A DNA stretch of 55,225 bases from an uncultured Clostridium sp. (GTDB taxonomy: Bacteria > Bacillota > Clostridia > Lachnospirales > Lachnospiraceae), in contig CAMWYM010000005.1 of the NCBI GenBank assembly GCA_947178475.1, positions 1 to 55,225 of the forward strand. Direction: 5' to 3'. How positions within the stretch are numbered: the first letter of the stretch is position 1; each line of letters begins with the position of its first letter. Position numbers and translations under genes: made by a program. Of this stretch, positions 4,072-17,203 are shown piece after piece. The notes under the pieces are model-generated. The model ran no database searches and had not been told where the DNA came from. It was given only the letters and a program-made list of their open reading frames with translations.

Positions 4072-4389
4072 TTATAATAATTCATATATTTGCTTCAGGA
4101 TAACACTAAGCCGTTCCGTTTGGCTTTGATTAAATAATTGCAATATTTCCACTAATTTGTGATCATATTCCACTTTTTCTGTTCCTGTTAATATATAATC
4201 CGAATTCACTTTCAACGCATTACATAGATTATAGAGAACAATTGCAGAAAAACCTTTTCTCCCTGTCTCAATCTCATATAAAAATTTAGGCGAGATAGAT
4301 GCCAATTCTGCTAAACATTCTCTTGTATACCCCCGCATAACACGAGCCAGCAAAATTCTTTCACCTGCTTCTTTATATAAAGCCATCAT
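4072..4389 (-). CDS. Cro/CI-family (XRE) transcriptional regulator
   Basis: A 105-residue protein with an N-terminal helix-turn-helix (about residues 8-65: ERILLARVMRGYTRECLAEL, then SPKFLYEIETGRKGFS as the recognition region) and a short alpha-helical tail likely used for dimerisation. A clean AGGAGG lies 9 nt before the ATG. It is divergent from agrB across 291 bp, and a second regulator of the same family (7339-7758) heads the kinase/regulator operon on the other side of the Agr island. This suggests both belong to the control of the island. The operator and targets cannot be read from sequence. Confidence 0.85.
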   Translation of the reverse strand: MMALYKEAGERILLARVMRGYTRECLAELASISPKFLYEIETGRKGFSAIVLYNLCNALKVNSDYILTGTEKVEYDHKLVEILQLFNQSQTERLSVILKQIYELL

Positions 4390-4680: not shown

Positions 4681-5229
4681 GTGTTTAAATTAAGTAGCAA
4701 AAGAGAATTAAATGAACGTGAAAAAAAATTGAATGAATATTACTGGAAATGTTTTTTGTCTGAATTTAGTAAGATATGTATATTTCTGATTATTTTCATA
4801 TTTCTGGATTTAACCACAGAATATATTTTTTCACTTCTATATTTGATGTTATTACGAAATAACGGCGGCGGACTTCATTGTAAACATTACATAAGCTGTT
4901 TATTAGTCAGCTTTACGTTTATATATGTCAGCATTTTTCTTGCTATATATATAACAGTTCCAAAACCATTAACCTATATAAGTATTGTTCTTTGCATGCT
5001 ATTTGGATATTATTTAGTACCTATCACTTCAAATAACCGTCCGGCAGCAACTCCATTACAAATAAAAAGATGTAAACAAAATACAGTATCAATAATAATT
5101 CTGTTTTTTATATTGATATGCTTATGTCCACATAGCACATATATATACATTGGTTATTGGACAATTATTTTGCATATACTGCAGCTGTTAATTGCCCAAG
5201 CAAAGAGGGAGGTGAGTAACAATGTCTAA
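4681..5229 (+). CDS. AgrB-like peptide-processing membrane protease
   Basis: Membrane cysteine endopeptidase that cuts the C-terminal tail from an AgrD precursor, cyclises the signal and helps export it. The 182-residue product has several hydrophobic segments and the family signature LLRNNGGGLHCKHYISC. His66 and Cys73 match the catalytic His77/Cys84 spacing of S. aureus AgrB, and the RxxGGGxH context is preserved. The start is GTG, with GGAG 7 nt upstream. The 3' end overlaps the agrD-like gene by 8 nt, giving translational coupling. It is convergent with the kinase gene, separated by a bidirectional terminator. Family assignment is secure; the substrate is inferred from position. Confidence 0.92.
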   Translation: MFKLSSKRELNEREKKLNEYYWKCFLSEFSKICIFLIIFIFLDLTTEYIFSLLYLMLLRNNGGGLHCKHYISCLLVSFTFIYVSIFLAIYITVPKPLTYISIVLCMLFGYYLVPITSNNRPAATPLQIKRCKQNTVSIIILFFILICLCPHSTYIYIGYWTIILHILQLLIAQAKREVSNNV

Positions 5230-5305
5230 TCGGGGATTTCATTTTGATTTTATCAGTTTACTATTCTTCGGTGAGCCAAAGCATCCGTTTTTAAATGAAG
5301 AATAA
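5222..5305 (+). CDS. AgrD-like autoinducing peptide precursor (27 aa)
   Basis: A 27-codon ORF that begins inside the agrB stop region (ATG at 5222) with a strong SD, GGGAGGTG, 7 nt upstream. The product has a short N-terminal leader of about 11 residues, then SLLFF, then the polar tail GEPKHPFLNEE. That tail resembles the conserved AgrD tail with E, P and L residues after the AgrB cut site. If AgrB cuts after Phe16, the ring would be the five residues Ser12-Phe16 closed by a serine ester, as in the S. intermedius signal; the usual Cys is absent from the whole peptide. The leader is shorter than the amphipathic helix of staphylococcal AgrD. Its position after agrB and before a terminator is exactly that expected. 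Confidence 0.82.
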   Translation: MSNRGFHFDFISLLFFGEPKHPFLNEE

Positions 5306-5308
5306 CTC

Positions 5309-5345
5309 AAAAGGTGCCATCAATAATTCTGATGGCACTTTTACT
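5309..5345. terminator. Bidirectional terminator between agrBD and the kinase gene
   Basis: Perfect 9-bp stem GTGCCATCA / TGATGGCAC with an AATAATTC-type loop. It has A-runs on the left and T-runs on the right, so it can end transcripts from both directions. It overlaps the last codons of the convergent kinase gene. Confidence 0.88.
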
Positions 5346-6621
5346 TTATAATTCTAACGGCAAATTCAATCCAATTATCCGCATCCTTTACAGTATTAGA
5401 CACCTTCAATTCTACATCATACTTCTTTGTCAATTCCAAAACTCTTGTTAAGCCTATTCCCCTATTTTCACCCTTAGTACTAAAACCTTTAACAAACATT
5501 TTCTCAATTTCAGAATAGGTAATATATCTTGAAGGATTGGAAACACAAATGGTTATTACATTTTCATCCTCTACGAACTCTAATTTTATCTGTTTATGTT
5601 TTCTTTGCTGTAATGCTAAACTTTCGCACGCATTGTCAAGTAATATTCCAAGCATCTCTATTAATTCATAAAGTTGGAAGCAGCAATTCGCTTGTTCAAT
5701 ATGTATATTGTAATCAACTGATACATCACTTTGTTCACATGAAAGACATCTGTGATATAAATAACCTGCTAATATAGGATTATTACAACTAGTTAATATT
5801 GAGTCAAATTTACAATTTTTTTGAATGGTATTTCCATACTCTTTTTGCATATAAACCAATTCATCCATAGACTTTGCAACTAAATGCATACTATATATAA
5901 CTCCCAATTGATTTTTAAAATCATGCTGCCTGCGTCTGACATCAGTAATTAAGTTCTCATAAGCCCCACCATAAATCCTTTGCACTTCTAATTCATAATT
6001 CTTTTTTTCAATTTCATTCTGCGCCAACACTAATCGATACAGATAGAATAATATTAATATCAAAGAAACTAAAACAAATATGCCATATACGCTCATAGGC
6101 TTTTGAATCAAATAATAGTCCATCAGTAAAACAATCATTGATGCACCCAATAATATTACAATTCCATACATATCCCGATTATATTTTGTCGTTTTCCTAA
6201 ATTTTAAGAGAATAACATTCCTTTTCATAAAACATGCAATAACCAATGCAATTATACTCGATAACAACAAAATATAAATCGAATTGCTTTCACCTCCACA
6301 AACATTAGTAACAAAAGCCACTATGCTTTCAATACAGCCTACCAGCACAAAACCAACAACAAACCTGATAATTGTTTTTGCAATCTTTTGTTTAAACTCA
6401 ATATAACAATATATAAATAGCAATACATACAACACAATAGAACATGGTGCCGGTAGTATCTTTAGATTAATAAGCATGTATAAACTGATATCTATGAATA
6501 TTATTCCAATCGTATATTTATCAAAATGTATTTCTTGCTTAAATGCGACTTGTAGACATTGTAGAACCATTAATACTTCAAATAACAAAATAGCTATCGA
6601 TATAAATTCATTCATCATCAT
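5341..6621 (-). CDS. AgrC-like sensor histidine kinase
   Basis: A 426-residue membrane sensor. About six hydrophobic segments fill residues 1-200. A linker leads to the phospho-acceptor box RRRQHDFKNQL (His233) and a GHKL-type ATPase domain with LLDNACESL (N box) and GENRGIGL (G box). This layout, with HDFKN in place of a HisKA H-box, is that of AgrC-type (HPK10) kinases that sense cyclic peptides. The gene overlaps the response-regulator gene by 14 nt, so the two are co-translated. Its likely ligand is the product of the adjacent agrBD pair. ATG triplets are clustered at the start, so the exact start among the first three Met codons is uncertain. Confidence 0.92.
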   Translation of the reverse strand: MMMNEFISIAILLFEVLMVLQCLQVAFKQEIHFDKYTIGIIFIDISLYMLINLKILPAPCSIVLYVLLFIYCYIEFKQKIAKTIIRFVVGFVLVGCIESIVAFVTNVCGGESNSIYILLLSSIIALVIACFMKRNVILLKFRKTTKYNRDMYGIVILLGASMIVLLMDYYLIQKPMSVYGIFVLVSLILILFYLYRLVLAQNEIEKKNYELEVQRIYGGAYENLITDVRRRQHDFKNQLGVIYSMHLVAKSMDELVYMQKEYGNTIQKNCKFDSILTSCNNPILAGYLYHRCLSCEQSDVSVDYNIHIEQANCCFQLYELIEMLGILLDNACESLALQQRKHKQIKLEFVEDENVITICVSNPSRYITYSEIEKMFVKGFSTKGENRGIGLTRVLELTKKYDVELKVSNTVKDADNWIEFAVRIIK

Positions 6622-7339
6622 CCATTTTCTCTTTAAAAGCCTTTTTCATTACAACACCAATCTCTACAGGACTATTTATATATTTAAGCTTAATATATCG
6701 GTTGACATAATCTATCTGTTCTATATATTTTCTATTGACAATACAATATCTACTACATGCAATAAATGATTTTGAATTCAGTTCTTTAAGAATTTCTCCA
6801 CAGGTCTTATATGGTATCTCCAATTCATCATTGACACAAAATATTTTTATTTTTCTTCGGATACTTTGTATATAAATAATATCTTTAATATATACAGAAT
6901 ACACGATTCCGTCTTTCCGGAAATATGCATACCTATCGTCTTCTTCCCTGACAGGGAATTCCAAGGCATCTAAAATAGTGTCCCTTACTTGAGCGACACT
7001 AAATGGTTTTTCAATATATCCTAAACAATGCAATTGACTATAGGAATACAGCTTGGGATCTTCCAATGATGTAATAAAAACTAATGGCGTAAATTTATAC
7101 TTAACTACTCCCCTAATCTCTTTTGCAAAACTCAAACCAGATACATCTCCAGGCTTTTTTGTATTTAATATTATATCTATCAAAAACAAGTGTATATGAT
7201 ACTCAAGGGCTAATTGAAATGCCTTCTCAATGCTATTAGCACAATATACTCTGACATCTTTATGCAATTCCTCAATAATTGCATATAATGCGTTCATGTG
7301 CGTTTCATTATCTTCAACTATCAAAATATTCCTTTGCAT
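6608..7339 (-). CDS. AgrA-like response regulator (receiver + LytTR)
   Basis: A 243-residue regulator. Residues 1-125 are a receiver domain with acidic pocket VEDN, phospho-acceptor Asp55 in FLIDIIL and a conserved Lys in YIEKPF. Residues about 140-240 form a LytTR DNA-binding domain (IKDIIYIQSIRRKIKIF, then FIACSRYCIVNRKYIEQI). This is the AgrA architecture. Its ATG overlaps the stop of the upstream Cro/CI gene (TGATG), and its 3' end overlaps the kinase, so all three form one operon. An expected role is activation of agrBD and possibly neighbouring operons when the peptide accumulates; clear binding repeats were not recognised by eye. Confidence 0.92.
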   Translation of the reverse strand: MQRNILIVEDNETHMNALYAIIEELHKDVRVYCANSIEKAFQLALEYHIHLFLIDIILNTKKPGDVSGLSFAKEIRGVVKYKFTPLVFITSLEDPKLYSYSQLHCLGYIEKPFSVAQVRDTILDALEFPVREEDDRYAYFRKDGIVYSVYIKDIIYIQSIRRKIKIFCVNDELEIPYKTCGEILKELNSKSFIACSRYCIVNRKYIEQIDYVNRYIKLKYINSPVEIGVVMKKAFKEKMDDDE

Positions 7340-8547: not shown

Positions 8548-8733
8548 TTATCTTTCTAATTCCATTTTTTTAACAGCTTGGAGCCAGTCATTCCATAGTG
8601 CCGGATCCATAGTCTCCTCATTACCTGTTAGAATCATGTCTCCAAGTAGTTCTCCAACATCATCAGAGCCCGTTCTTTCATAAAATTGTTCTAAAAAATA
8701 TATCATAGCTATATATGCCTCTTGATTTGTCAT
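8548..8733 (-). CDS. Small acidic protein, probable immunity protein
   Basis: 61 residues from the ATG at 8733, chosen because AAGGAG lies 6 nt before it; a longer frame from 8832 has a weak start overlapping the upstream stop. The protein is helical and acidic, with FLEQFYERTGSDDVGELLGD and, near the end, DPALWNDWLQAVKK. This pattern recalls small immunity proteins found beside contact-dependent or polymorphic toxins, a match from memory that was not tested. It is the second ORF downstream of the LXG-like toxin. It could be the true partner of the toxin or an orphan immunity gene. Confidence 0.65.
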   Translation of the reverse strand: MTNQEAYIAMIYFLEQFYERTGSDDVGELLGDMILTGNEETMDPALWNDWLQAVKKMELER

Positions 8734-8825
8734 TTTTATCTCCTTGAATTGGCTTATTAGGATTTGAAAGACCTGTTTCAGAATTATAAACCGTCGATGA
8801 ATTATTAACTCCTCCATTTCAAATT

Positions 8826-9176
8826 TTACCATTCTAAACCTGTACCCATATTTGTCTTCAGTTTTTCATTCAAAATACCTAATACAGCTTTTAGCCTTTG
8901 CTCTAATGTATCCACAATCTCCTCCTCTTGTTCTATGGAATATATTATATTTCCAAAATCCTCATGCCAAAGTAACTCATAGGTAATTTTACCTAAATGT
9001 AATTTTATCACACTAAAATATATATAATCTACCTTTTCTTCTGCTAACATACCAAACTCCCTGCAGAAAATCTTTGCCAAATAATCACCACCGTCTTCAT
9101 AATCCCAATTAATAAGCAAAAACTCTATTCTATTTTTTTTATCTACATTTATATGTTTTTTATAGGTTACTTCCAT
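8826..9176 (-). CDS. Probable cognate immunity protein of the LXG-like toxin
   Basis: A 116-residue soluble protein, start ATG at 9176, five nucleotides after the toxin stop. This arrangement, toxin then small acidic gene, is the standard toxin-immunity pair in T7SS loci. The protein has no signal peptide or membrane segment, so it would act in the cytoplasm. It shows mixed alpha/beta character, with KLHLGKITYELLWHEDFGN and an acidic helix EQEEEIVDTLEQRLKAV. I do not recognise a named immunity family, so the function rests on position. Confidence 0.65.
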   Translation of the reverse strand: MEVTYKKHINVDKKNRIEFLLINWDYEDGGDYLAKIFCREFGMLAEEKVDYIYFSVIKLHLGKITYELLWHEDFGNIIYSIEQEEEIVDTLEQRLKAVLGILNEKLKTNMGTGLEW

Positions 9177-9181
9177 ATGCT

Positions 9182-10723
9182 TTACTCCAATCCCAATGAT
9201 TTATTTACAGATTTTCTTGAACGTTGTGAACTTTCAATAATTGCTTTATATATATCATCTCCTTTCAAACCCTTTTCTCTCTGCTTTCTAACAATTTCTT
9301 CCCATGTAAGATTCGGATCTGTTTTATATAAAGACTCTGCTGTTGCCCTATCTGCCATAAGTTCTCTAGCCAGCGTCCTAAACTGATTTCGCAGATTAAA
9401 TGCCTGTTTCGCCTGTTCTTCCAAAGGTAAACTTTTATCAATCATATCTGGTATTTTTGCCTCTTGTTCCAAATACCACTTTCTTGCTTCAACATTACTT
9501 AAAGAATGTTTACCACCCTTACCAGACACATTTGGAACATCCAGTGTATCCTTTGGTACATTACCAGGACTTGTTACATCATCCGCTTTGCTTGTCACAC
9601 CTGCCACATCTGCCACGTCATCCGCTTTTCCTGCTGCACCTGCTACATCATCCGCTTTTCCTGCTATACCTGCGACATCCTCTACGTCATCTATCTTTCC
9701 AGCAGCATTGGCTACATCTGTTACATCATCTGCCTTTCCAGCCCCTTTCATTGCTTTTCCTAGCAGAAAGTCCGTAATCACGTAGCTTGCTATATACACT
9801 GCTCCTTCTTTTTCATAGGTGTCGCTGGTATACTGTGCCATGGATTCTATCGTGTCTATCGGATTCATTATCGCTTCCACTATCGGGTCGAAATACCAAT
9901 CATACTCACGCAGCGCATCCTCTACCCATTCCGGAGGCTCATCCGTCAACAGACTGACTACCCTTGCCGCATCTGCCCTTACTGCATAATACAGCATAAC
10001 TTCAATGTTTGCAATCCCCTCTACCGCTTCTATGACAGCCATCTTCATTCCTTTTAACAGGCTGTTTACAAATTCTGTATGGTTTACTTTCGATTGTCTC
10101 AGACAATCCATTGGACTGGAACATATTCTTCTTGCTGCTAATGCCCTCCAGCGATGCTCGTCATCCTTATTCTCATATTTTTTTACCTTTTCCTTGTAAT
10201 AACGATTTAAGGTTTCCTTGTCATCTTCCAGCTTTTCTATTAACTTAGGTATAATCTCTCCCTGAATCTGGTTATATATCTTTGCATAATTTTTTTCCAT
10301 CTTAATCCGGTCTTCATCTGTTAAACCTTCATATGGCTCTGTCTGGGGCAGGTAACGTTTTTTTATATTCTCTACATTCACTAATTGACATTTAATTGCC
10401 ATCATGTTCATATAAATATCATTTCTTCCCACTCTTGTTGTTCCGGTAAGTGGTTTTATGATCCCTGTCATATCATCTATAAATTCACGCAAAGAATTAC
10501 ATAATGTTGAAACCTCAGCTATGCTTTTATCTACACTCTTTTTCGCTTTCTTGTATCTTTTCTTTAACTGCCTAAATGACACTGCATCATTATTAGCCTC
10601 CACCAATTTGTCAACCTGCTCCAAGGCATCACGGATTATGTATAATTCATTCCAGTATTGATTTAGTTTTGATAGCAGAATATTTAGCATTTCATAATTG
10701 ATACGAATGTCTCGTTTCTCCAT
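9182..10723 (-). CDS. LXG-like T7SS polymorphic toxin
   Basis: 513 residues without a signal peptide. Residues 1-200 are helical and charged, as in LXG-type N-terminal secretion domains of T7SSb toxins. Residues 205-325 form a middle domain with some hydrophobic stretches. Residues 329-390 are a low-complexity linker of 10-13-residue units (GKADDVADVAGVT and variants). Residues 401-513 form a separate C-terminal domain (ARKWYLEQEAKIP, FNLRNQFRTLARELMADR, TDPNLTWEEI, SSQRSRKSVNKSLGLE) that I recall from the ends of Rhs and other polymorphic toxins; its activity is not known to me. Two small partners precede it and two immunity candidates follow. The N-terminal LXG assignment rests on length, helicity and context. 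Confidence 0.78.
   Translation of the reverse strand: MEKRDIRINYEMLNILLSKLNQYWNELYIIRDALEQVDKLVEANNDAVSFRQLKKRYKKAKKSVDKSIAEVSTLCNSLREFIDDMTGIIKPLTGTTRVGRNDIYMNMMAIKCQLVNVENIKKRYLPQTEPYEGLTDEDRIKMEKNYAKIYNQIQGEIIPKLIEKLEDDKETLNRYYKEKVKKYENKDDEHRWRALAARRICSSPMDCLRQSKVNHTEFVNSLLKGMKMAVIEAVEGIANIEVMLYYAVRADAARVVSLLTDEPPEWVEDALREYDWYFDPIVEAIMNPIDTIESMAQYTSDTYEKEGAVYIASYVITDFLLGKAMKGAGKADDVTDVANAAGKIDDVEDVAGIAGKADDVAGAAGKADDVADVAGVTSKADDVTSPGNVPKDTLDVPNVSGKGGKHSLSNVEARKWYLEQEAKIPDMIDKSLPLEEQAKQAFNLRNQFRTLARELMADRATAESLYKTDPNLTWEEIVRKQREKGLKGDDIYKAIIESSQRSRKSVNKSLGLE
9554..9739 (-). repeat. 39-bp-type tandem repeats coding the toxin linker
   Basis: About five imperfect units, four of 39 bp and one of 30 bp, encode (G/S)K(A/I)DDV-x-DVA-type repeats. 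They form a flexible hinge between the secretion part and the C-terminal toxin domain. Such repeats can change in number or help swap toxin tips by recombination; the second is inference. Confidence 0.85.
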
Positions 10724-10734
10724 AAAAGTCTCCT

Positions 10735-10941
10735 TTATTCGTATGTTATTGCTTCAATCTCAGCAATAGCTTCAAGTATGCTTCCCTGCATATTTGTTAT
10801 CACAAAATCAATATCATCGTATAAAGTAACATTTTCTATATCCATTTCATCAAAATTTTCTCGGATAGCTGCACTTATATCTTCTAAATCGCCTATAATC
10901 CCATTCTTAAATAAAACTGCTTGTTCCCTAGACATTAACAA
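10735..10941 (-). CDS. Small helical LXG-partner protein (68 aa)
   Basis: A 68-residue acidic helical protein with no cysteine or membrane segment, located 11 nt before the toxin gene. The start is either TTG at 10941, 9 nt after GGAGG, or the ATG two codons later; it overlaps the preceding stop. Known LXG toxins need one or two small alpha-helical partners (Lap proteins) encoded just upstream, which bind the LXG domain and help target it to the secretion machine. Size, order and overlap fit that role. The family itself is not recognised. Confidence 0.7.
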   Translation of the reverse strand: MLMSREQAVLFKNGIIGDLEDISAAIRENFDEMDIENVTLYDDIDFVITNMQGSILEAIAEIEAITYE

Positions 10942-11243
10942 TTTTTATTGCCTCCTTTTATTTTCATTGCAATTGCTTCATCCGCCTCTTCCCATATATT
11001 GAATACACTATTAAGTTCAGAACAATAATTAGACACTGACTCTAGCGTTTTTTTCGTCCGGTCATCTTTATATATCCTCAATAATTTTTCAAATTCCTCC
11101 AAATAGTCCGAATTATAGGATTGAAGGCAATCCATCGCAGAACCTACAAATTCTTTATAATGCGGAGTAAAATCGTCTACCGCAGTTTTCAAAGTTAATG
11201 CTGCAGTTTTTAAGCTTTGCAAATCTATTTCTATCTTACTCAT
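10935..11243 (-). CDS. WXG100-like / Lap-type helical partner (102 aa)
   Basis: A 102-residue two-helix protein: IDLQSLKTAALTLKTAVDDF, a central turn, then a helix with LLRIYKDDRTKKTLESV. It resembles WXG100-like partners of LXG toxins (Lap or DUF3130-type) but has no central WXG. SD GGAGTG lies 7 nt before the ATG, and the gene overlaps the upstream DUF4176 gene by 8 nt. It likely forms a complex with the LXG-like toxin and the 68-residue protein for export. Confidence 0.75.
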   Translation of the reverse strand: MSKIEIDLQSLKTAALTLKTAVDDFTPHYKEFVGSAMDCLQSYNSDYLEEFEKLLRIYKDDRTKKTLESVSNYCSELNSVFNIWEEADEAIAMKIKGGNKNC

Positions 11244-11907
11244 TTGTCATCACTCCTAATTCTTCTCTATACTTCTCCATTCTCCCCTTGCTGAGAAATC
11301 CAAAGGATACTGCTTCATTATCCAAAATCAATTCCTTTTTCATCAATAATATATATGCATTATCCATATCATCCTGATATCCTGCATGAACCACTGAATC
11401 AATCAACGAGCTAGTGAATTGAATGCATCGGCCATACCCTAATGTTCCAACCGGATACACAGTTCCTACATATGGAAAATAGGCTTCTTTATCTGCCGTT
11501 GAAGAAAATCTTTCTATAATCACCACTTTGACTTTATATGTCTGATTTTTTAATTTTAAAGATTTGGAAAAGTCTTCACTTAGTTCCACTACCGTACCCA
11601 GCGGATAAATTGGTTCAAAAATATCGATAAAACGAGCTATTAATTCTCTTGCGTTTTCATATTCAAGTACTATCTCTTGATTTTTCCATATTAGATGACA
11701 TTCTTCATCCATATAAAATGACAACCGCATTTCGTTTTGCTCTGCTTTTTCTACCGCATTATTCATACATTCAAAACATGAATACCAAAATGAAATTGTC
11801 CTTTCACTTTCCAGACCTAATTGCATCAACATAACCTGTTGCTCATCATTCAAATAATCTACATCTTCTAAGTAATCCGAAAATAGCTTTAATAACTCCT
11901 CTTTCAT
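11236..11907 (-). CDS. DUF4176-domain protein of the T7SS locus
   Basis: About 223 residues. The second half carries the DUF4176 pattern: YPLGTVVEL near the middle, KVKVVIIERF, YFPYVGTVYPVGTLGYG, then VVHAGYQDDMDNAYILLM. DUF4176 proteins are regularly coded beside LXG toxins in Firmicute T7SS loci, but their biochemical role is unknown. The first half is a helical region with Cys residues in FWYSCFECMNN. The ATG at 11907 is preferred because AGAAGG lies 8 nt upstream; GTG at 11916 is the alternative. It sits between essC and the toxin partners in tight overlap. Confidence 0.8.
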   Translation of the reverse strand: MKEELLKLFSDYLEDVDYLNDEQQVMLMQLGLESERTISFWYSCFECMNNAVEKAEQNEMRLSFYMDEECHLIWKNQEIVLEYENARELIARFIDIFEPIYPLGTVVELSEDFSKSLKLKNQTYKVKVVIIERFSSTADKEAYFPYVGTVYPVGTLGYGRCIQFTSSLIDSVVHAGYQDDMDNAYILLMKKELILDNEAVSFGFLSKGRMEKYREELGVMTNE

Positions 11908-11924
11908 CATTCGCACCTTCTTTC

Positions 11925-14900
11925 TTACACCAATGGAATTTTAATTTTTATTATTTTTCCCTTATTTATAATATATCCCATTCCAGTTTCTACTTCCTCA
12001 TTTCGAATATACGGAACATCAAATATAGACTGGTCACTTGATTTGCCAAGAATCACACCATTAACTGCTTCTTTCATATACTTAGTTAGCTCACCATACC
12101 CTCGCAGCTTACCGTTAGTTGCAGTTGCAATTATAGTAATTCCATAGTTTTCCAAACACATGATTGTTTCAGCAGCCTCAGCTAATTCAATGTCCTCCAA
12201 TGCTTCCGTCAAGTCATCCCAATCCTCAACTAAGACCACAATATTAGACAACTGTTCATAATAAGCCTTAGGCGTCAACATCGGATTACTTACACGCTGC
12301 ATTTGATATTGTTCCTCCCTATCCTCCATTATTTTCTTAATACTCTCGTCAAAAGATAATATCGCATCTTTATTGTTAATATAGGTGACATTCTCCTGTG
12401 CCTGATATAACATCAACTCTGAATCTTTAGAATCGAATAAGTAAATGGGAATATCCGCTGAAATATTATGAAGTAACACTTTCAACATATTGGTTCTGCC
12501 AGTTTGTGCCGAACCGATAATAAGCTGCCTGTATGTATTCAATTCTATATACTGTGGCACAACTTCTTCTGTCTCAAGACCAATTGGCACAAGATGTTTT
12601 GGTGCTATTTTGTAATATGCCTTAAAGGATGCAATTGTTAATTCTTCCGGCAGCATCGGAATCGCTTTCGGTCTCTGTCCAGTATATACATCAGATAATC
12701 TTTGGATATACCCCCTTACTGTCTCCATGTAGGACACCAAATCCAAAGCATCTGCAACAGCATACAACTGAATCTGATTGACATTTTCCAATTTTACCAG
12801 ACCCCTTCCCTTAATCTCCGTTAATGGATATTGGGTACGTCCAATTGCAGCCTGCATATCTGAACTTTCATACATAAATAATACTATCTTATTCTTGAAA
12901 TTATTTTGTACCGTGTATCTAACCGCCCCCAGCCTTGTTGCCGTAATCACTACATAGATACCAAGACTCACACCATCTCTTGTAAATTGCGTTAATACAG
13001 CCTCCAGGTCAACCTCTAACTCTCTTATGACATCATAATTATCAATGAATAAAAAGATAGCTGGCAGCTTTTCCACTGTAATCTGGTTATACATAGTGAA
13101 ATTCATTGCACTCGCATCTGCAAATAATCTCTTACGCATTTTAATCTCTTCCTGCAGAATTTTGATTAGCTTCTGTAGTTTTTTCATATCATCCAAACTT
13201 ATATAATCTGCAGTATGCGGTAAATTCTTAAATTGTATCAAACCGGAATTACCAAAATCTAAGATATAATAATGCACTCGTTCTGCGGAATTCTTAATTG
13301 CCATCTCCATCATCATCGTAGATAATGTAAAGGTTTTACCAAATCCTGACGAGCCATAGATGGCCAAATTACCATCCTCCGGAAAATCAATTTTATATTC
13401 TACCTGCTTTTGTTGTTCCGGAATATCTACCAAGCCCAATGTTGTCTTCAAATCAAACTCCATTTTCTGATTAACATCTGATATATACCCCTCGGCAATA
13501 TATGAGCTAATCAACATACGTTCCAATGACGGAAGCCATGGGCTTTTCACTTTATCTACATGCTCATCTTCAAAAATGTCATGTATATGAGATACCACAA
13601 CATCCAATTGTGTTGATTTTATTTGATTTCCGTCCGTATTCTTACTTAAATCCTGATTAATCAGCTCACCTTGACCCAAATCATTTACAAGATATACTCT
13701 GTCATCCACAAACTCTTCTTCTGTATCTGCATTAAAGGCCGCTCCACTCCACGCCGACTGAAACAGCTCATAAATTTCATTGTTACCCACCTGCAAATAT
13801 GCGCGGCCTGCTTGTGTAATAAATGCGGCATCCGGAGTTTTAATAATTTCTTTACTGTCTCCTTCATTCTGTACCTTTAACGCTAACTTGAATTTTGAAT
13901 TTGTCCAAATCTGGTCATCCACTACTCCGCTCGGTTTCTGTGTAGCAAGAATCAGGTGTATACCAAGGCTTCGTCCAATTCGTGCCGCAGACACCAGTTC
14001 TGACATAAAATCCGGCTGCTCCTTCTTAAGCTCTGCAAATTCGTCACTGATTAGGAACAAATGGGGAATTGGCTCTATTGCCTTACCCAGCTTAAATAGC
14101 TTGTTATATGCATTAATATGATTGACATCATATTGACTGAATATCTTTTGCCGTCGGGCCAACTCGCTTTTGATCGATGCCATTGCACGCATACTTTCAC
14201 TGCCATCCAAGTTAGTAATTGTTCCCAATAGGTGTGGAAGGTCCTTAAACAGATTCGCCATTCCGCCACCCTTATAATCAATCAACAAAAATCCAACCTC
14301 ATATGGATGAAAATTTACTGCCAATGAAAGAATATACGACTGCACAATCTCTGATTTTCCCGAACCAGTGGTTCCTGCAACCAAACCATGCGGACCATGT
14401 GCTTTCTCATGTAAATTAAGATATACATAATCTTCCTTTGCGCGCACCCCCAACGGAACAGCAAGTGATTTATGTGACTCATTCTTTTTCCATCTCTGTT
14501 TTACCTGCAACTGCTCTGGTCTTTCCACCTGATACATATCAAAGAAAGTAATACTCTCAGGAATTTGTGACATAATTCCCTGTTCGTGTTTCAATACACT
14601 CAAATCTCTTGCCATTTTTTCCAAATCAACATCTCCCACATGGGATAACGTCAATTTTTCATTAACCATTTCCTTGTTACTCAACAACAAGCAACCATCT
14701 GTAGAATTTTCCACCATAAATACAGTACCTATATACTCTGGTAAATCAGCCTGAAAATAACTGGTGTATATAATAGAAAAACCTAACTTATCTCCATCTT
14801 TATCCAAATATTCCATAATGGAATGATCCATAATCATTTTGGGTTCATCAATAATAAAAACATAATGTGGTAAAAACCTGCTCTCCTTCTTACTCTCATC

Positions 14901-15830
14901 CAACTTGTCTTTTCGTGCTTTTAATATCTGCGTTAAGCTTCCCAATACCTGGTCACGCATTTTCTCCGAGTTCACACAACCAGACACATTTAAATCATTC
15001 AAGCGGAAATGTGGATACCAACGCATCCAACGAAAATCATCATCATATTTCGCATCATAGATTGCAATCATCTCCACATCATGGTAACTTTGCAAAAACG
15101 TCAGCTGCGATACCAGAAGCTTTAACTGTTCATGCACATTCCTCTTTTCACCCACCAGCCCCAGATGCGCCTTTTTCAAATCTGCCACAACCGGCTTTTG
15201 GGGAAGCACTACCGCTTCATCCTTAATCTCATTTGCCTCTATAAGTAACTTGTCTTTATCCATAGAAAGTTCATCATAATCCAGCTCAATCGGAAATGAG
15301 ACCAGCTTTTTATTATGTCCTAGAACTACCTGTAAAAAATCTTCATCATTACAATTCCGTTCATAAATACGGCTACTCTTTTGCTCCACCATACCATAAA
15401 TCTTATCTACATCTGGAAAATTATATGAATCTGCTTCAATCTCCTGTTCTCTTCTCCGATAAATTTCTTTCCGCATCTTTAACAAGTACTTCTGGTATAG
15501 CTCTTCTCTCTTTTTATTTGATTCTCTGCACTCCTTTTGATCGCTCAAAAACTTTACAACAGAAATAATAACGGTCATAAGTGTTCCTGATGCAGACATT
15601 AATACATAGGAACCTCTATTCATGAATATACTGATACACACTGTTACCGCTAACATACACAAAGGTGGGACGATTAATTGAACAATACTTCCTTTCTGCA
15701 TTCGCTTTTTTGCTGGCGGACTATTAAACTTGATACTTTCAGCATTTGTACGTTTGATTAATCTTGGTGACCTTCTATATCGAATGCTCTCTTTATATGC
15801 ATCTGATACATTTAACTGTACATTACTCAT
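11925..15830 (-). CDS. essC: EssC/YukBA-type T7SS ATPase
   Basis: Membrane-bound FtsK/SpoIIIE-type motor that powers T7SSb export. Of 1301 residues, two transmembrane segments lie at about 49-90. The first ATPase domain has Walker A GTTGSGKS near residue 485 and Walker B FLISDEFAEL. The second has GSSGFGKT near 826. The third has GSAQTGRTN near 1103, where Arg replaces the Walker A Lys, so it probably binds nucleotide poorly. Staphylococcal EssC is about 180 residues longer and starts with two FHA domains; the membrane segments here begin so early that these are missing. The start is ATG at 15830 with GGAGG upstream, overlapping essB. Confidence 0.95.
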   Translation of the reverse strand: MSNVQLNVSDAYKESIRYRRSPRLIKRTNAESIKFNSPPAKKRMQKGSIVQLIVPPLCMLAVTVCISIFMNRGSYVLMSASGTLMTVIISVVKFLSDQKECRESNKKREELYQKYLLKMRKEIYRRREQEIEADSYNFPDVDKIYGMVEQKSSRIYERNCNDEDFLQVVLGHNKKLVSFPIELDYDELSMDKDKLLIEANEIKDEAVVLPQKPVVADLKKAHLGLVGEKRNVHEQLKLLVSQLTFLQSYHDVEMIAIYDAKYDDDFRWMRWYPHFRLNDLNVSGCVNSEKMRDQVLGSLTQILKARKDKLDESKKESRFLPHYVFIIDEPKMIMDHSIMEYLDKDGDKLGFSIIYTSYFQADLPEYIGTVFMVENSTDGCLLLSNKEMVNEKLTLSHVGDVDLEKMARDLSVLKHEQGIMSQIPESITFFDMYQVERPEQLQVKQRWKKNESHKSLAVPLGVRAKEDYVYLNLHEKAHGPHGLVAGTTGSGKSEIVQSYILSLAVNFHPYEVGFLLIDYKGGGMANLFKDLPHLLGTITNLDGSESMRAMASIKSELARRQKIFSQYDVNHINAYNKLFKLGKAIEPIPHLFLISDEFAELKKEQPDFMSELVSAARIGRSLGIHLILATQKPSGVVDDQIWTNSKFKLALKVQNEGDSKEIIKTPDAAFITQAGRAYLQVGNNEIYELFQSAWSGAAFNADTEEEFVDDRVYLVNDLGQGELINQDLSKNTDGNQIKSTQLDVVVSHIHDIFEDEHVDKVKSPWLPSLERMLISSYIAEGYISDVNQKMEFDLKTTLGLVDIPEQQKQVEYKIDFPEDGNLAIYGSSGFGKTFTLSTMMMEMAIKNSAERVHYYILDFGNSGLIQFKNLPHTADYISLDDMKKLQKLIKILQEEIKMRKRLFADASAMNFTMYNQITVEKLPAIFLFIDNYDVIRELEVDLEAVLTQFTRDGVSLGIYVVITATRLGAVRYTVQNNFKNKIVLFMYESSDMQAAIGRTQYPLTEIKGRGLVKLENVNQIQLYAVADALDLVSYMETVRGYIQRLSDVYTGQRPKAIPMLPEELTIASFKAYYKIAPKHLVPIGLETEEVVPQYIELNTYRQLIIGSAQTGRTNMLKVLLHNISADIPIYLFDSKDSELMLYQAQENVTYINNKDAILSFDESIKKIMEDREEQYQMQRVSNPMLTPKAYYEQLSNIVVLVEDWDDLTEALEDIELAEAAETIMCLENYGITIIATATNGKLRGYGELTKYMKEAVNGVILGKSSDQSIFDVPYIRNEEVETGMGYIINKGKIIKIKIPLV

Positions 15831-16953
15831 TCTCTTCCTCCTCCACAGAATACTGTTCTGCCAGAGAATCTATCTTACTCTGTAAATTGGTAATCGCTTC
15901 ATTCTTCTCCGTACCTGTCAGTTCTGTATTTTCCTCTAACTGTTGCTTTTCCTTCAAATATGCGTATAGAAGCAATTCATCATCGGAGCGCTGCATTGCA
16001 ATATTCTCCGCCTCAGTAACATTACCTCTTCCCAACTCAATCCAATATTCTGAAATCTGTTCACTGCCCTCCGGTAATAGCAATGCCAGTATATTGTCTT
16101 TCTGTTCAGCAGTTAAATCCTCGCTTTTCACGTATGCCACTGCTAATACATATTTTTGACGACTATCAAGATTTTCGGTACGAATACCCCTGCCTGCATC
16201 TATGAGCGATACATAATCCTCTACCAGATAATTTCCATATACCTCTAACATATGTTTTTGTTCTTCAACCTTATAAAAATAAAGATATAGTAATCCCCCC
16301 AACAATACCGTTATAAGTAAACTTGCAAAAACAATATATCCGTTTTTTCTTTTATATACTGCCCGCTTTACTTCAACATAATAAACATTGCGTTCTTCCA
16401 CTATTTTTTCATATTGTTCTTCTAAAGCCGTTAATATAGCATCTACTGATTCCGCTTCTAAAATTTTATTCAGAAACTTATCTTTTCTTAAAAGTGCTTG
16501 TCCACCCTCTAGATAATCCTCATAATCATAACGACTTTGCATAACATAACCAATCAAAGATTTATATTCCTCTATAAAATGCTCTTGCTTGCCAGAATAG
16601 TCTTTTGAGACAATATCCCTATGCATAACATACACATTTCCTTTCATATCATAATATAAATTATCCGGATTCATAGAAAATGAATATTGCTTTCGTAAAT
16701 CCTGCACATTTTTCACATTTCCCAGCACAACCATTTGTTTTAATTTGTCATCTTTTCTGAGCTGTCGAAGGGGGGTTACATGTTTCTTATTATATGTAAA
16801 CTGAAGTTCTTCCTCTGTTTCTTCTATAATACAATCAAGAAACCCTTCCTGACTTTCAACTAATCTATCATATTCTTCTTCTCTCACAACCATCCCAGAC
16901 TTCTTCACAACAATTGTCACAACATCCTTTTTATCATTCTGTTTATCTCTCAT
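15823..16953 (-). CDS. essB: EssB/YukC-type T7SS membrane protein
   Basis: Core T7SSb subunit. From the ATG at 16953 (SD AAGGAG, 8 nt upstream) it is 376 residues. It has a cytoplasmic pseudokinase-like region of about 200 residues with DNLYYDMKGNVYVMHRD, one transmembrane helix (YIVFASLLITVLLGGLLYLY), and an outer helical region with an acidic C-terminus. EssB bridges EsaB, EssC and EsaA in the secretion complex. It overlaps esaB by 11 nt and essC by 8 nt. A longer frame from 17016 lies inside esaB and is not needed. Confidence 0.92.
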   Translation of the reverse strand: MRDKQNDKKDVVTIVVKKSGMVVREEEYDRLVESQEGFLDCIIEETEEELQFTYNKKHVTPLRQLRKDDKLKQMVVLGNVKNVQDLRKQYSFSMNPDNLYYDMKGNVYVMHRDIVSKDYSGKQEHFIEEYKSLIGYVMQSRYDYEDYLEGGQALLRKDKFLNKILEAESVDAILTALEEQYEKIVEERNVYYVEVKRAVYKRKNGYIVFASLLITVLLGGLLYLYFYKVEEQKHMLEVYGNYLVEDYVSLIDAGRGIRTENLDSRQKYVLAVAYVKSEDLTAEQKDNILALLLPEGSEQISEYWIELGRGNVTEAENIAMQRSDDELLLYAYLKEKQQLEENTELTGTEKNEAITNLQSKIDSLAEQYSVEEEENE

Positions 16954-17203
16954 CTTTGTTCTCCTTTTCACAGGTAATACCAACAATGTCCGCTGTATAG
17001 ACCCCATTCTCCTCATATGTTTGTTTCATGTCTAACCATTGGCTATTTCTTACCGAAAACACTTGATACGACTCACACTTAGTACCATCAATCAATCCAT
17101 TTTCCATAAGAACCTGTAAGGTATCCTTAATTCTTTGTTCTGAGGGAACCTGTATATCAAATGCTTTCTTTTCATTTTCTTTAATTGTTAATGTCAATAT
17201 CAT
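16943..17203 (-). CDS. esaB: EsaB/YukD-type ubiquitin-like protein
   Basis: An 86-residue cytoplasmic protein with the beta-grasp pattern of YukD/EsaB: ILTLTIKENEKKAFDIQVP, then a helix QRIKDTLQVLMENGLI and later strands. EsaB is a small T7SSb component needed for secretion. The ATG at 17203 is chosen since AGAGGAG lies just upstream. It overlaps both essA (23 nt) and essB. Confidence 0.87.
   Translation of the reverse strand: MILTLTIKENEKKAFDIQVPSEQRIKDTLQVLMENGLIDGTKCESYQVFSVRNSQWLDMKQTYEENGVYTADIVGITCEKENKDER

What the first reader, a model, noticed from the sequence alone, without database searches (positions are those of the whole stretch)
5222..5305. Hidden 27-codon AgrD gene predicting a serine-lactone quorum peptide
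Seen: an ORF with strong SD overlapping the agrB end, coding ...SLLFF|GEPKHPFLNEE with no cysteine at all. Known: AgrB cuts AgrD after a five-residue ring closed by Cys (rarely Ser, as in S. intermedius). Inferred: the ring is Ser-Leu-Leu-Phe-Phe, a lactone, made from one of the shortest AgrD precursors. Cys-free AgrD peptides outside staphylococci are little described, and such genes are normally missed.
Basis: partly seen in the sequence, partly recalled or inferred. Interest (0 to 1): 0.78.

Follow-up and report, generated by a model that had tools for sequence, protein, structure and literature searches.

The report
Serine-type AgrD quorum peptide gene
A 27-codon gene hidden behind agrB very probably encodes a bacterial signalling peptide whose ring is closed by serine instead of the usual cysteine, and it belongs to a little-annotated class of such genes in related bacteria.

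Summary
Window 5222-5305 (+) is an ORF with a strong Shine-Dalgarno, overlapping the agrB stop by 8 nt, encoding MSNRGFHFDFI-SLLFF-GEPKHPFLNEE, without cysteine. The strict motif appears in 0 of 20,000 shuffles, and relatives carry the same motif at the same place. In a supported clade of 29 AgrBs ring residue 1 is Ser in 24 and Cys in 5, and tail residue +2 is Glu in 29: Ser is the usual state here. The clade's tails lack the Leu at +9 reported essential in S. aureus (1 of 29 have it, against 22 of 22 outside). NCBI's AgrD model passes none of the 9 clade peptides tested. The kinase operon converges on agrBD in 25 of the 26 clade loci with a visible kinase. The window's 11-residue leader is the shortest of 28; its two nearest relatives are odd too (16 residues; fused to AgrB).

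Most likely AgrB cuts after Phe16 and Ser12 closes a five-residue lactone, sensed by the neighbouring kinase. Ring chemistry and activity are inferred. New variant of a known kind.

The parts
4681..5229 (+). agrB, 182 aa membrane peptidase; R59, H66 and C73 match in spacing the S. aureus R70, H77 and C84
   Evidence: PF04647 E 5.6e-27; R59/G63/G64/H66/C73 invariant in 24 of 24 aligned AgrBs
5208..5215 (+). Shine-Dalgarno GGAGGTGA for agrD, inside the 3' end of agrB
   Evidence: 8-nt match, spacing 6
5222..5305 (+). agrD-like gene, 27 aa, overlaps the agrB stop by 8 nt
5222..5254 (+). leader of 11 residues (MSNRGFHFDFI), shortest of 28 clade leaders
5255..5269 (+). predicted ring Ser-Leu-Leu-Phe-Phe (Ser codon AGT)
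5270..5302 (+). C-terminal tail GEPKHPFLNEE, removed by AgrB (inferred); Glu+2 and Pro+6 kept, Leu+9 absent
5310..5342 (.). hairpin (13 bp) where the two operons converge (it reaches 2 nt into the kinase stop codon); likely two-way terminator
5341..6621 (-). AgrC-like GHKL histidine kinase, 426 aa, converging on agrBD
   Evidence: PF14501 E 3.4e-13; staphylococcal AgrC model over residues 10-402 at E 2.2e-15, but the DcuS/MalK-type model scores higher (E 2.8e-25); both far below their cut-offs
6608..7339 (-). AgrA-like response regulator (REC + LytTR)
   Evidence: PF00072, PF04397
7339..7758 (-). XRE-family regulator, first gene of the regulator/kinase operon
   Evidence: PF01381; XRE-like gene beside the regulator in 15 of 25 loci scanned
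4072..4389 (-). second XRE-family regulator, divergent from agrB
   Evidence: PF12844; related gene in 7 of 25 loci scanned

Best explanation
The ORF is a functional AgrD-like precursor of a variant agr system. AgrB binds the GEPxxP tail, its Cys73 attacks the bond after Phe16, the 11-residue tail leaves, and the hydroxyl of Ser12 attacks the acyl-enzyme to release a five-residue lactone, cyclo(Ser-Leu-Leu-Phe-Phe), with leader residues still attached. A host protease trims these. The lactone is exported and sensed by the AgrC-like kinase encoded on the opposite strand, which acts through the LytTR regulator. Shown here: the genes, their conservation, the Ser/Cys distribution, the tail change and the convergent layout. 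Inferred: cleavage site, lactone bond, export, sensing and targets.
For: AgrB is a clear PF04647 member with its catalytic residues. The mini-ORF has an SD, overlap with agrB and a terminator-like hairpin. The motif lies at the same place in 25 of 25 AgrBs scoring at least 187 bits. In the 29-member clade residue 1 is Ser 24/Cys 5, residue 5 Phe/Leu 29, +1 Gly 28, +2 Glu 29, +6 Pro 23. Ser and Cys replace each other: 11 changes on the best tree of 51, at least 8 forced by starred branches (the finder asked for C or S, but none of the 25 nearest lacked one). Four closely related AgrDs are under purifying selection (dN/dS 0.06-0.25 in the five pairs where dS could be computed, at dS 1.25-2.96, near saturation; the sixth pair saturated). 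In the nearest relative the motif is fused in frame to AgrB (L016). The kinase occurs at E<=1e-40 in 6 of the 26 genus genomes, and all 6 hold an AgrB of the clade.
Against: No mass spectrum, transcript or activity. The leader is 11 residues, whereas an N-terminal amphipathic helix is reported to appear essential in S. aureus, as is L41, whose place holds Asn here (PMC10482373). S. aureus AgrB1 and AgrB2 could not process a Ser AgrD (same source), so competence must be specific to this AgrB. The window's peptide has no close orthologue (nearest AgrB 41-47% identical), so selection on this very ORF could not be measured. Three of the 24 Ser members carry a Cys at ring residue 3 (L004, L008, L024), so they are not Cys-free, though that Cys would leave a three-residue ring. 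The kinase resembles the DcuS/MalK-type model more than the AgrC model. L024 shows no kinase in 12 kb (L077) and L026 has it on the same strand.
Confidence: 0.8

Rival explanations
1. The ORF is AgrD-derived but decayed: the leader was lost, AgrB can no longer process it, and the locus is on its way out.
For: Shortest leader of 28; nearest relatives also have odd leaders, one a fusion that lacks AgrB's last segment; patchy presence of the module.
Against: Ring, Glu+2, Pro+6, SD, AgrB, kinase and regulator are all intact in the window; L017 (L069) keeps a 16-residue leader beside an open AgrB, kinase and regulator, so short leaders persist in the subclade.
Confidence: 0.13
2. The precursor is real and cut by AgrB, but the product is linear or closed through another residue, so no Ser lactone exists.
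For: The bond cannot be read from sequence; 3 of 24 Ser members have another candidate, a Cys at ring residue 3, though the window has none.
Against: Ser and Cys alternate at exactly this position inside and outside the clade, as expected of the ring nucleophile; a Ser lactone AIP is established in the S. intermedius group (PMC10482373 and PMC3673130, passages).
Confidence: 0.06
3. Chance ORF; AgrB's real substrate lies elsewhere.
For: Two other agrB genes in this genome (C39, C89) have no recognisable GE-type AgrD beside them, and 48 of the 101 AgrBs examined have none.
Against: 0 of 20,000 shuffles give the strict motif; same place and motif in 25 of 25 near AgrBs.
Confidence: 0.01

Closest known systems
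Staphylococcus intermedius group AIP (Ser lactone; Ji et al. 2005, seen only through passages of PMC10482373 and PMC3673130)
   Same: AgrB/AgrD system with Ser in place of Cys; lactone product established there
   Different: There an exception among Cys species; here Ser is the majority state of a separate AgrB clade, with convergent kinase operon, different tail and, in the window, a shorter leader
Canonical S. aureus agrBDCA (PMC10482373, PMC10196373, passages)
   Same: AgrB family and catalytic residues, Glu at +2, Pro at +6, sensor kinase and response regulator at the locus
   Different: Ser not Cys, no Leu at +9, leader 11 not 24-25 residues, kinase/regulator on the opposite strand, XRE genes
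E. faecalis FsrB/FsrD (GBAP)
   Same: Peptide lactone signal, AgrB-type processing protein; precursor gene tied closely to that gene
   Different: Ring of 9 residues (PMC4916163, passage); fsrD lies wholly inside fsrB in another frame (PMC3673130, passage)
Clostridium acetobutylicum agr (PMC10301443, passages)
   Same: agrBD separate from agrCA
   Different: Six-membered ring there; five here

Membership tests
agr-type (AgrB/AgrD) peptide signalling | AgrB peptidase gene adjacent with catalytic His/Cys | tested here: met
   PF04647 E 5.6e-27; H66, C73 in 24 of 24
agr-type (AgrB/AgrD) peptide signalling | Short precursor beside agrB with nucleophile (Cys or Ser) five residues before a Glu-containing tail | tested here: met
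agr-type (AgrB/AgrD) peptide signalling | AgrC-like kinase plus LytTR regulator at the locus | tested here: met
   GHKL kinase and REC-LytTR; by NCBIfam the kinase is below the AgrC cut-off and nearer DcuS/MalK
agr-type (AgrB/AgrD) peptide signalling | Cyclic peptide made by AgrB and sensed by the kinase | not testable with these tools
   needs mass spectrometry and reporter assays
Canonical (staphylococcal-type) AgrD | Ring Cys | tested here: not met
   Ser; no Cys in the ORF
Canonical (staphylococcal-type) AgrD | Amphipathic leader of about 24-25 residues | tested here: not met
   11 residues, upstream in-frame stop
Canonical (staphylococcal-type) AgrD | Glu at +2 (S. aureus E34) | tested here: met
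   29 of 29 clade members, window included (the finder asked for it)
Canonical (staphylococcal-type) AgrD | Leu at +9 (S. aureus L41) | tested here: not met
   Asn in the window; Leu in 1 of 29 clade members, 22 of 22 outside
NCBIfam TIGR04223 (AgrD) | Match over the curated cut-off (19 bits) | tested here: not met
   0 of the 9 clade peptides scanned (of 29), window included; best 16.9 bits; one Cys peptide from beyond the clade (L048) 19.4 bits
Single-operon agrBDCA | Kinase and regulator downstream on the same strand | tested here: not met
   Opposite strand in the window and in 25 of 26 clade loci with a visible kinase

The most novel reading that the evidence does not exclude
A separate class of AgrB/AgrD pairs, probably spread through Lachnospiraceae, reads a different tail code (mostly GE[PY]x[YF]P, without the Leu at +9 thought essential), uses mostly Ser lactones while switching repeatedly to Cys thiolactones, and in the window's own subclade no longer needs the amphipathic leader, the precursor being 27-33 residues or fused to AgrB.
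Probability: 0.4. Interest if true: 0.68.

Novelty: new variant of a known kind. Interest (0 to 1): 0.56.

Why it matters
The only established Ser-lactone AIP with a five-residue ring that I know of (partly recalled) is that of the S. intermedius group. Here Ser is the rule in a whole AgrB clade whose peptide genes a standard model misses, so a set of likely quorum signals goes unannotated. Because Ser and Cys alternate among related AgrBs, the clade is a natural experiment on how an AgrB accepts a hydroxyl or a thiol nucleophile; S. aureus AgrB1 and AgrB2 do not take Ser (PMC10482373). The short-leader subclade makes the need for the AgrD leader directly testable.

Tried and rejected
Chance ORF: rejected. 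Longer N-terminus: excluded by the in-frame TGA at 5213-5215. Programmed +1 shift from agrB into agrD: considered on paper only; the SD sits where it serves the ATG. Curated models: NCBIfam 0 of 9 clade peptides over cut-off, with a single control (L048) at 19.4 bits; Pfam 0 of 10, the control included, so Pfam says nothing either way; no hit for the window ORF alone. AgrB among solved structures: none by sequence or profile; no structure was predicted. Viral contigs: 23 stretches matched a pattern, none a relative. Phage records: one, the unverified faecal scaffold MT839371.1, with a frame-broken agrB and an AgrD-like SLLLF-GEQPYP; not counted. Named-genome scan: one relative, L004. AgrD of the other two agrB genes of this genome: none recognised.

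Limits. Searches return at most 30 loci each; matches without a locus were mostly not examined (in one search all 19 genomes at 130 bits or more had one). The finder asked for Cys or Ser at residue 1 and [GDE]E after residue 5; of 101 distinct AgrBs (agrB frames cut by a contig end dropped; L002, L005, L089 and L120 left out as copies or phage) 53 gave a candidate and 48 none; two poor candidates (L039, L088) were dropped, leaving 51 for the tree. Profile A1 was built from 24 top AgrB matches after I had seen their peptides, so scores with it favour those rows; an AgrB outside the clade (L046) also scores 146 bits. The genomes listed bear the handles (G731 apart), so it is not an independent sample. 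Leader starts were chosen by script (ATG and SD preferred); several peptides have inner ATGs, and L017 could start at one that leaves 10 residues. Ser counts are not independent events. The AGY codon test (23 of 24 against 111 of 331, binomial p 2e-10) ignores relatedness. Long branches (L007, L017, L019, L024, L029, L033 and others) are unsure. L016 ends 29 nt before a contig end, so its fusion may be an assembly fault. Literature: 10 searches of open-licence papers turned up no description of a Ser-type AgrD clade in Lachnospiraceae in the listings and in passages of the nine papers opened; PMC4916163 says in general that a Ser replaces the Cys in some cases. Wuster and Babu 2008 is not held. 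Prior notice elsewhere is possible.

Full report
What is there. The window carries agrB at 4681-5229 (+) (PF04647, E 5.6e-27) and, overlapping its stop by 8 nt, a 27-codon ORF at 5222-5305 encoding MSNRGFHFDFISLLFFGEPKHPFLNEE. GGAGGTGA ends 6 nt before the ATG. An in-frame TGA at 5213-5215 rules out a longer protein. A 13-bp hairpin at 5310-5342 follows (-18.4 kcal/mol, 0 of 200 shuffles as good). There agrBD meets a convergent operon of an XRE regulator, a LytTR response regulator and a GHKL kinase, 7758-5341 (-). The kinase matches the staphylococcal AgrC model over residues 10-402 at E 2.2e-15, but a DcuS/MalK-type model scores higher (E 2.8e-25); both lie far below their cut-offs, so 'AgrC-like' rests on the setting as much as on the sequence.

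Not chance. In 20,000 dinucleotide-preserving shuffles of 5190-5345 a loose AgrD motif arose 6 times and the strict [CS]xxFFGEP motif 0 times, without requiring a start codon.

Relatives. The AgrB has no close orthologue. The window's own genome included, 8 of 26 genus genomes match at E<=1e-5, the best foreign one 37% identical; 26 of 397 family genomes at E<=1e-8, the best foreign one 47% over residues 8-157; 32 of 392 order genomes at E<=1e-8. A profile of 24 AgrBs (A1) finds 19 of 397 family genomes at 130 bits or more, the next at 116; in a phylum sample of 398 no genome but the window's own reaches 120 bits. The family is coded, not named; a named record inside the clade, L004, is an uncultured Lachnospiraceae bacterium, so the family is probably Lachnospiraceae (inferred).

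The peptide gene is conserved. At all 25 AgrBs that score at least 187 bits, window included, lies an AgrD-like motif: 23 Ser, 2 Cys (24 of the 25 are rows of the profile). On a tree of 51 AgrBs the window lies in a supported clade of 29 (99/90): 24 Ser, 5 Cys. Over all 51 rows there are 32 Ser and 19 Cys, with 11 changes on the best tree and at least 8 forced by starred branches. In the clade ring residue 5 is Phe or Leu (29 of 29), +1 Gly (28), +2 Glu (29), +5 Tyr or Phe (26), +6 Pro (23). Three of the 24 Ser members also have a Cys at ring residue 3; 20 of 29 have no Cys in the ring and the first six tail residues. Four closely related AgrDs (L004, L043 twice, L044) show dN/dS of 0.06-0.25 in five pairs at nearly saturated dS; the sixth pair was saturated.

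A changed tail. A review states that E34 and L41 of S. aureus AgrD, its N-terminal amphipathic helix and its tail length appear essential for processing in cell-based assays (PMC10482373, passages). By the AgrD sequence printed in PMC10196373 (passage) these residues are +2 and +9 from the cut. Glu at +2 is in 29 of 29 clade members and 22 of 22 outside, but the finder asked for it. Leu at +9, for which it did not ask, is in 22 of 22 outside the clade and in 1 of 29 inside (L007, a long branch). Pro at +6 is in 22 of 22 outside and 23 of 29 inside; the finder did not require it but ranked candidates with a nearby Pro higher. AgrB keeps R59, H66 and C73 in 24 of 24, spaced as S. aureus R70, H77 and C84; R70 was modelled in contact with E34 (PMC10196373, passages). 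This looks like an AgrB/AgrD pair with an altered tail code, which may explain why TIGR04223 passes 0 of the 9 clade peptides scanned (best 16.9 bits against 19) while the one Cys peptide from beyond the clade, L048, scores 19.4. Pfam finds none of the 10, L048 included.

The leader. Among 28 clade peptides with a start backed by an SD, leaders run from 11 (window) and 16 (L017) through 20 and 21 to 36, with 28 the mode; the 29th, L016, has no start of its own. The window also has the shortest of the longest possible leaders (11, then 16 and 20), although inner ATGs could shorten others (L017 to 10). The window, L016 and L017 form a starred set of three (100/98). In L016 the motif SIIFF-GEPEYP is fused in frame to an AgrB that lacks its usual last segment, but the contig ends 29 nt later. 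A second same-frame AgrB-AgrD ORF, outside the clade, is L047. So this subclade has short or no leaders; whether leaders are dispensable there is a question for the bench.

Layout. The kinase is downstream on the opposite strand in 25 of the 26 clade loci where it is visible, on the same strand in one (L026), and not seen in three: L016 and L019 near contig ends, L024 in a 12-kb stretch. Over all 51 loci it is convergent in 42 of 44 visible, so convergence is not special to the Ser clade. In the genus, kinases at E<=1e-40 occur in 6 of 26 genomes, and all 6 hold a clade AgrB.

How it works, most likely. AgrB cleaves after Phe16, Ser12 closes the lactone, a second protease trims the leader, the peptide is exported and read by the convergent kinase. 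Only the gene-level parts are shown. S. aureus AgrB1 and AgrB2 cannot process Ser AgrD (PMC10482373), so this AgrB must differ in a way that the natural Ser/Cys alternation could help to map. Ser codons are AGY in 23 of 24 Ser members of the clade against 111 of 331 in their agrB genes: one T-to-A step from Cys TGY. This fits repeated Ser/Cys exchange or one AGY ancestor; relatedness prevents a choice.

Compared with what is known. Ser lactone AIPs are established in the S. intermedius group (PMC3673130 and PMC10482373, passages) and, with a larger ring, in GBAP of E. faecalis (PMC4916163, PMC3673130, passages). Separate agrBD and agrCA operons are known in C. acetobutylicum (PMC10301443, passages). 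I found no description of a Ser-majority AgrD clade in Lachnospiraceae in 10 full-text searches of open-licence papers (listed in Tried and rejected); subscription papers were not searched.

Verdict. Observation confirmed; interpretation supported and enlarged: a new variant of a known kind.

Noticed in passing
   Followed up: partly
L047 1354-2175 (-): A second single ORF holding AgrB and then an AgrD-like end SWFLF-GEIPCPKNL; its 3' end overlaps that of the convergent kinase by 8 nt.
   Followed up: partly
   Followed up: partly
window 8548-17016 (-): Type VII secretion-like cluster (FtsK/SpoIIIE ATPase 11925-15830; YukC 15823-17016, PF10140 E 3.1e-79) beside the agr locus; no hit to its ATPase or to the 513-aa LXG-like protein in 25 other agrB loci of 2.4-12.5 kb, so the neighbourhood may be particular to this genome.
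   Followed up: partly
own genome, contigs C39 (L001) and C89 (L003): Two further agrB genes without a recognisable GE-type AgrD nearby; in L003 agrB and a kinase-like ORF end against each other.
   Followed up: partly
L089 (MT839371.1, unverified phage scaffold from human faeces): Carries a frame-broken agrB followed by an AgrD-like SLLLF-GEQPYP; may be bacterial DNA filed as phage.
   Followed up: partly
L052, L053, L047, L059, L057, L067 (outside the clade): Ser at ring residue 1 also occurs with canonical PxxL tails, with Cys sisters on the tree (L057/L054, L067/L060), so Ser/Cys switching is not limited to the window's clade.
   Followed up: partly
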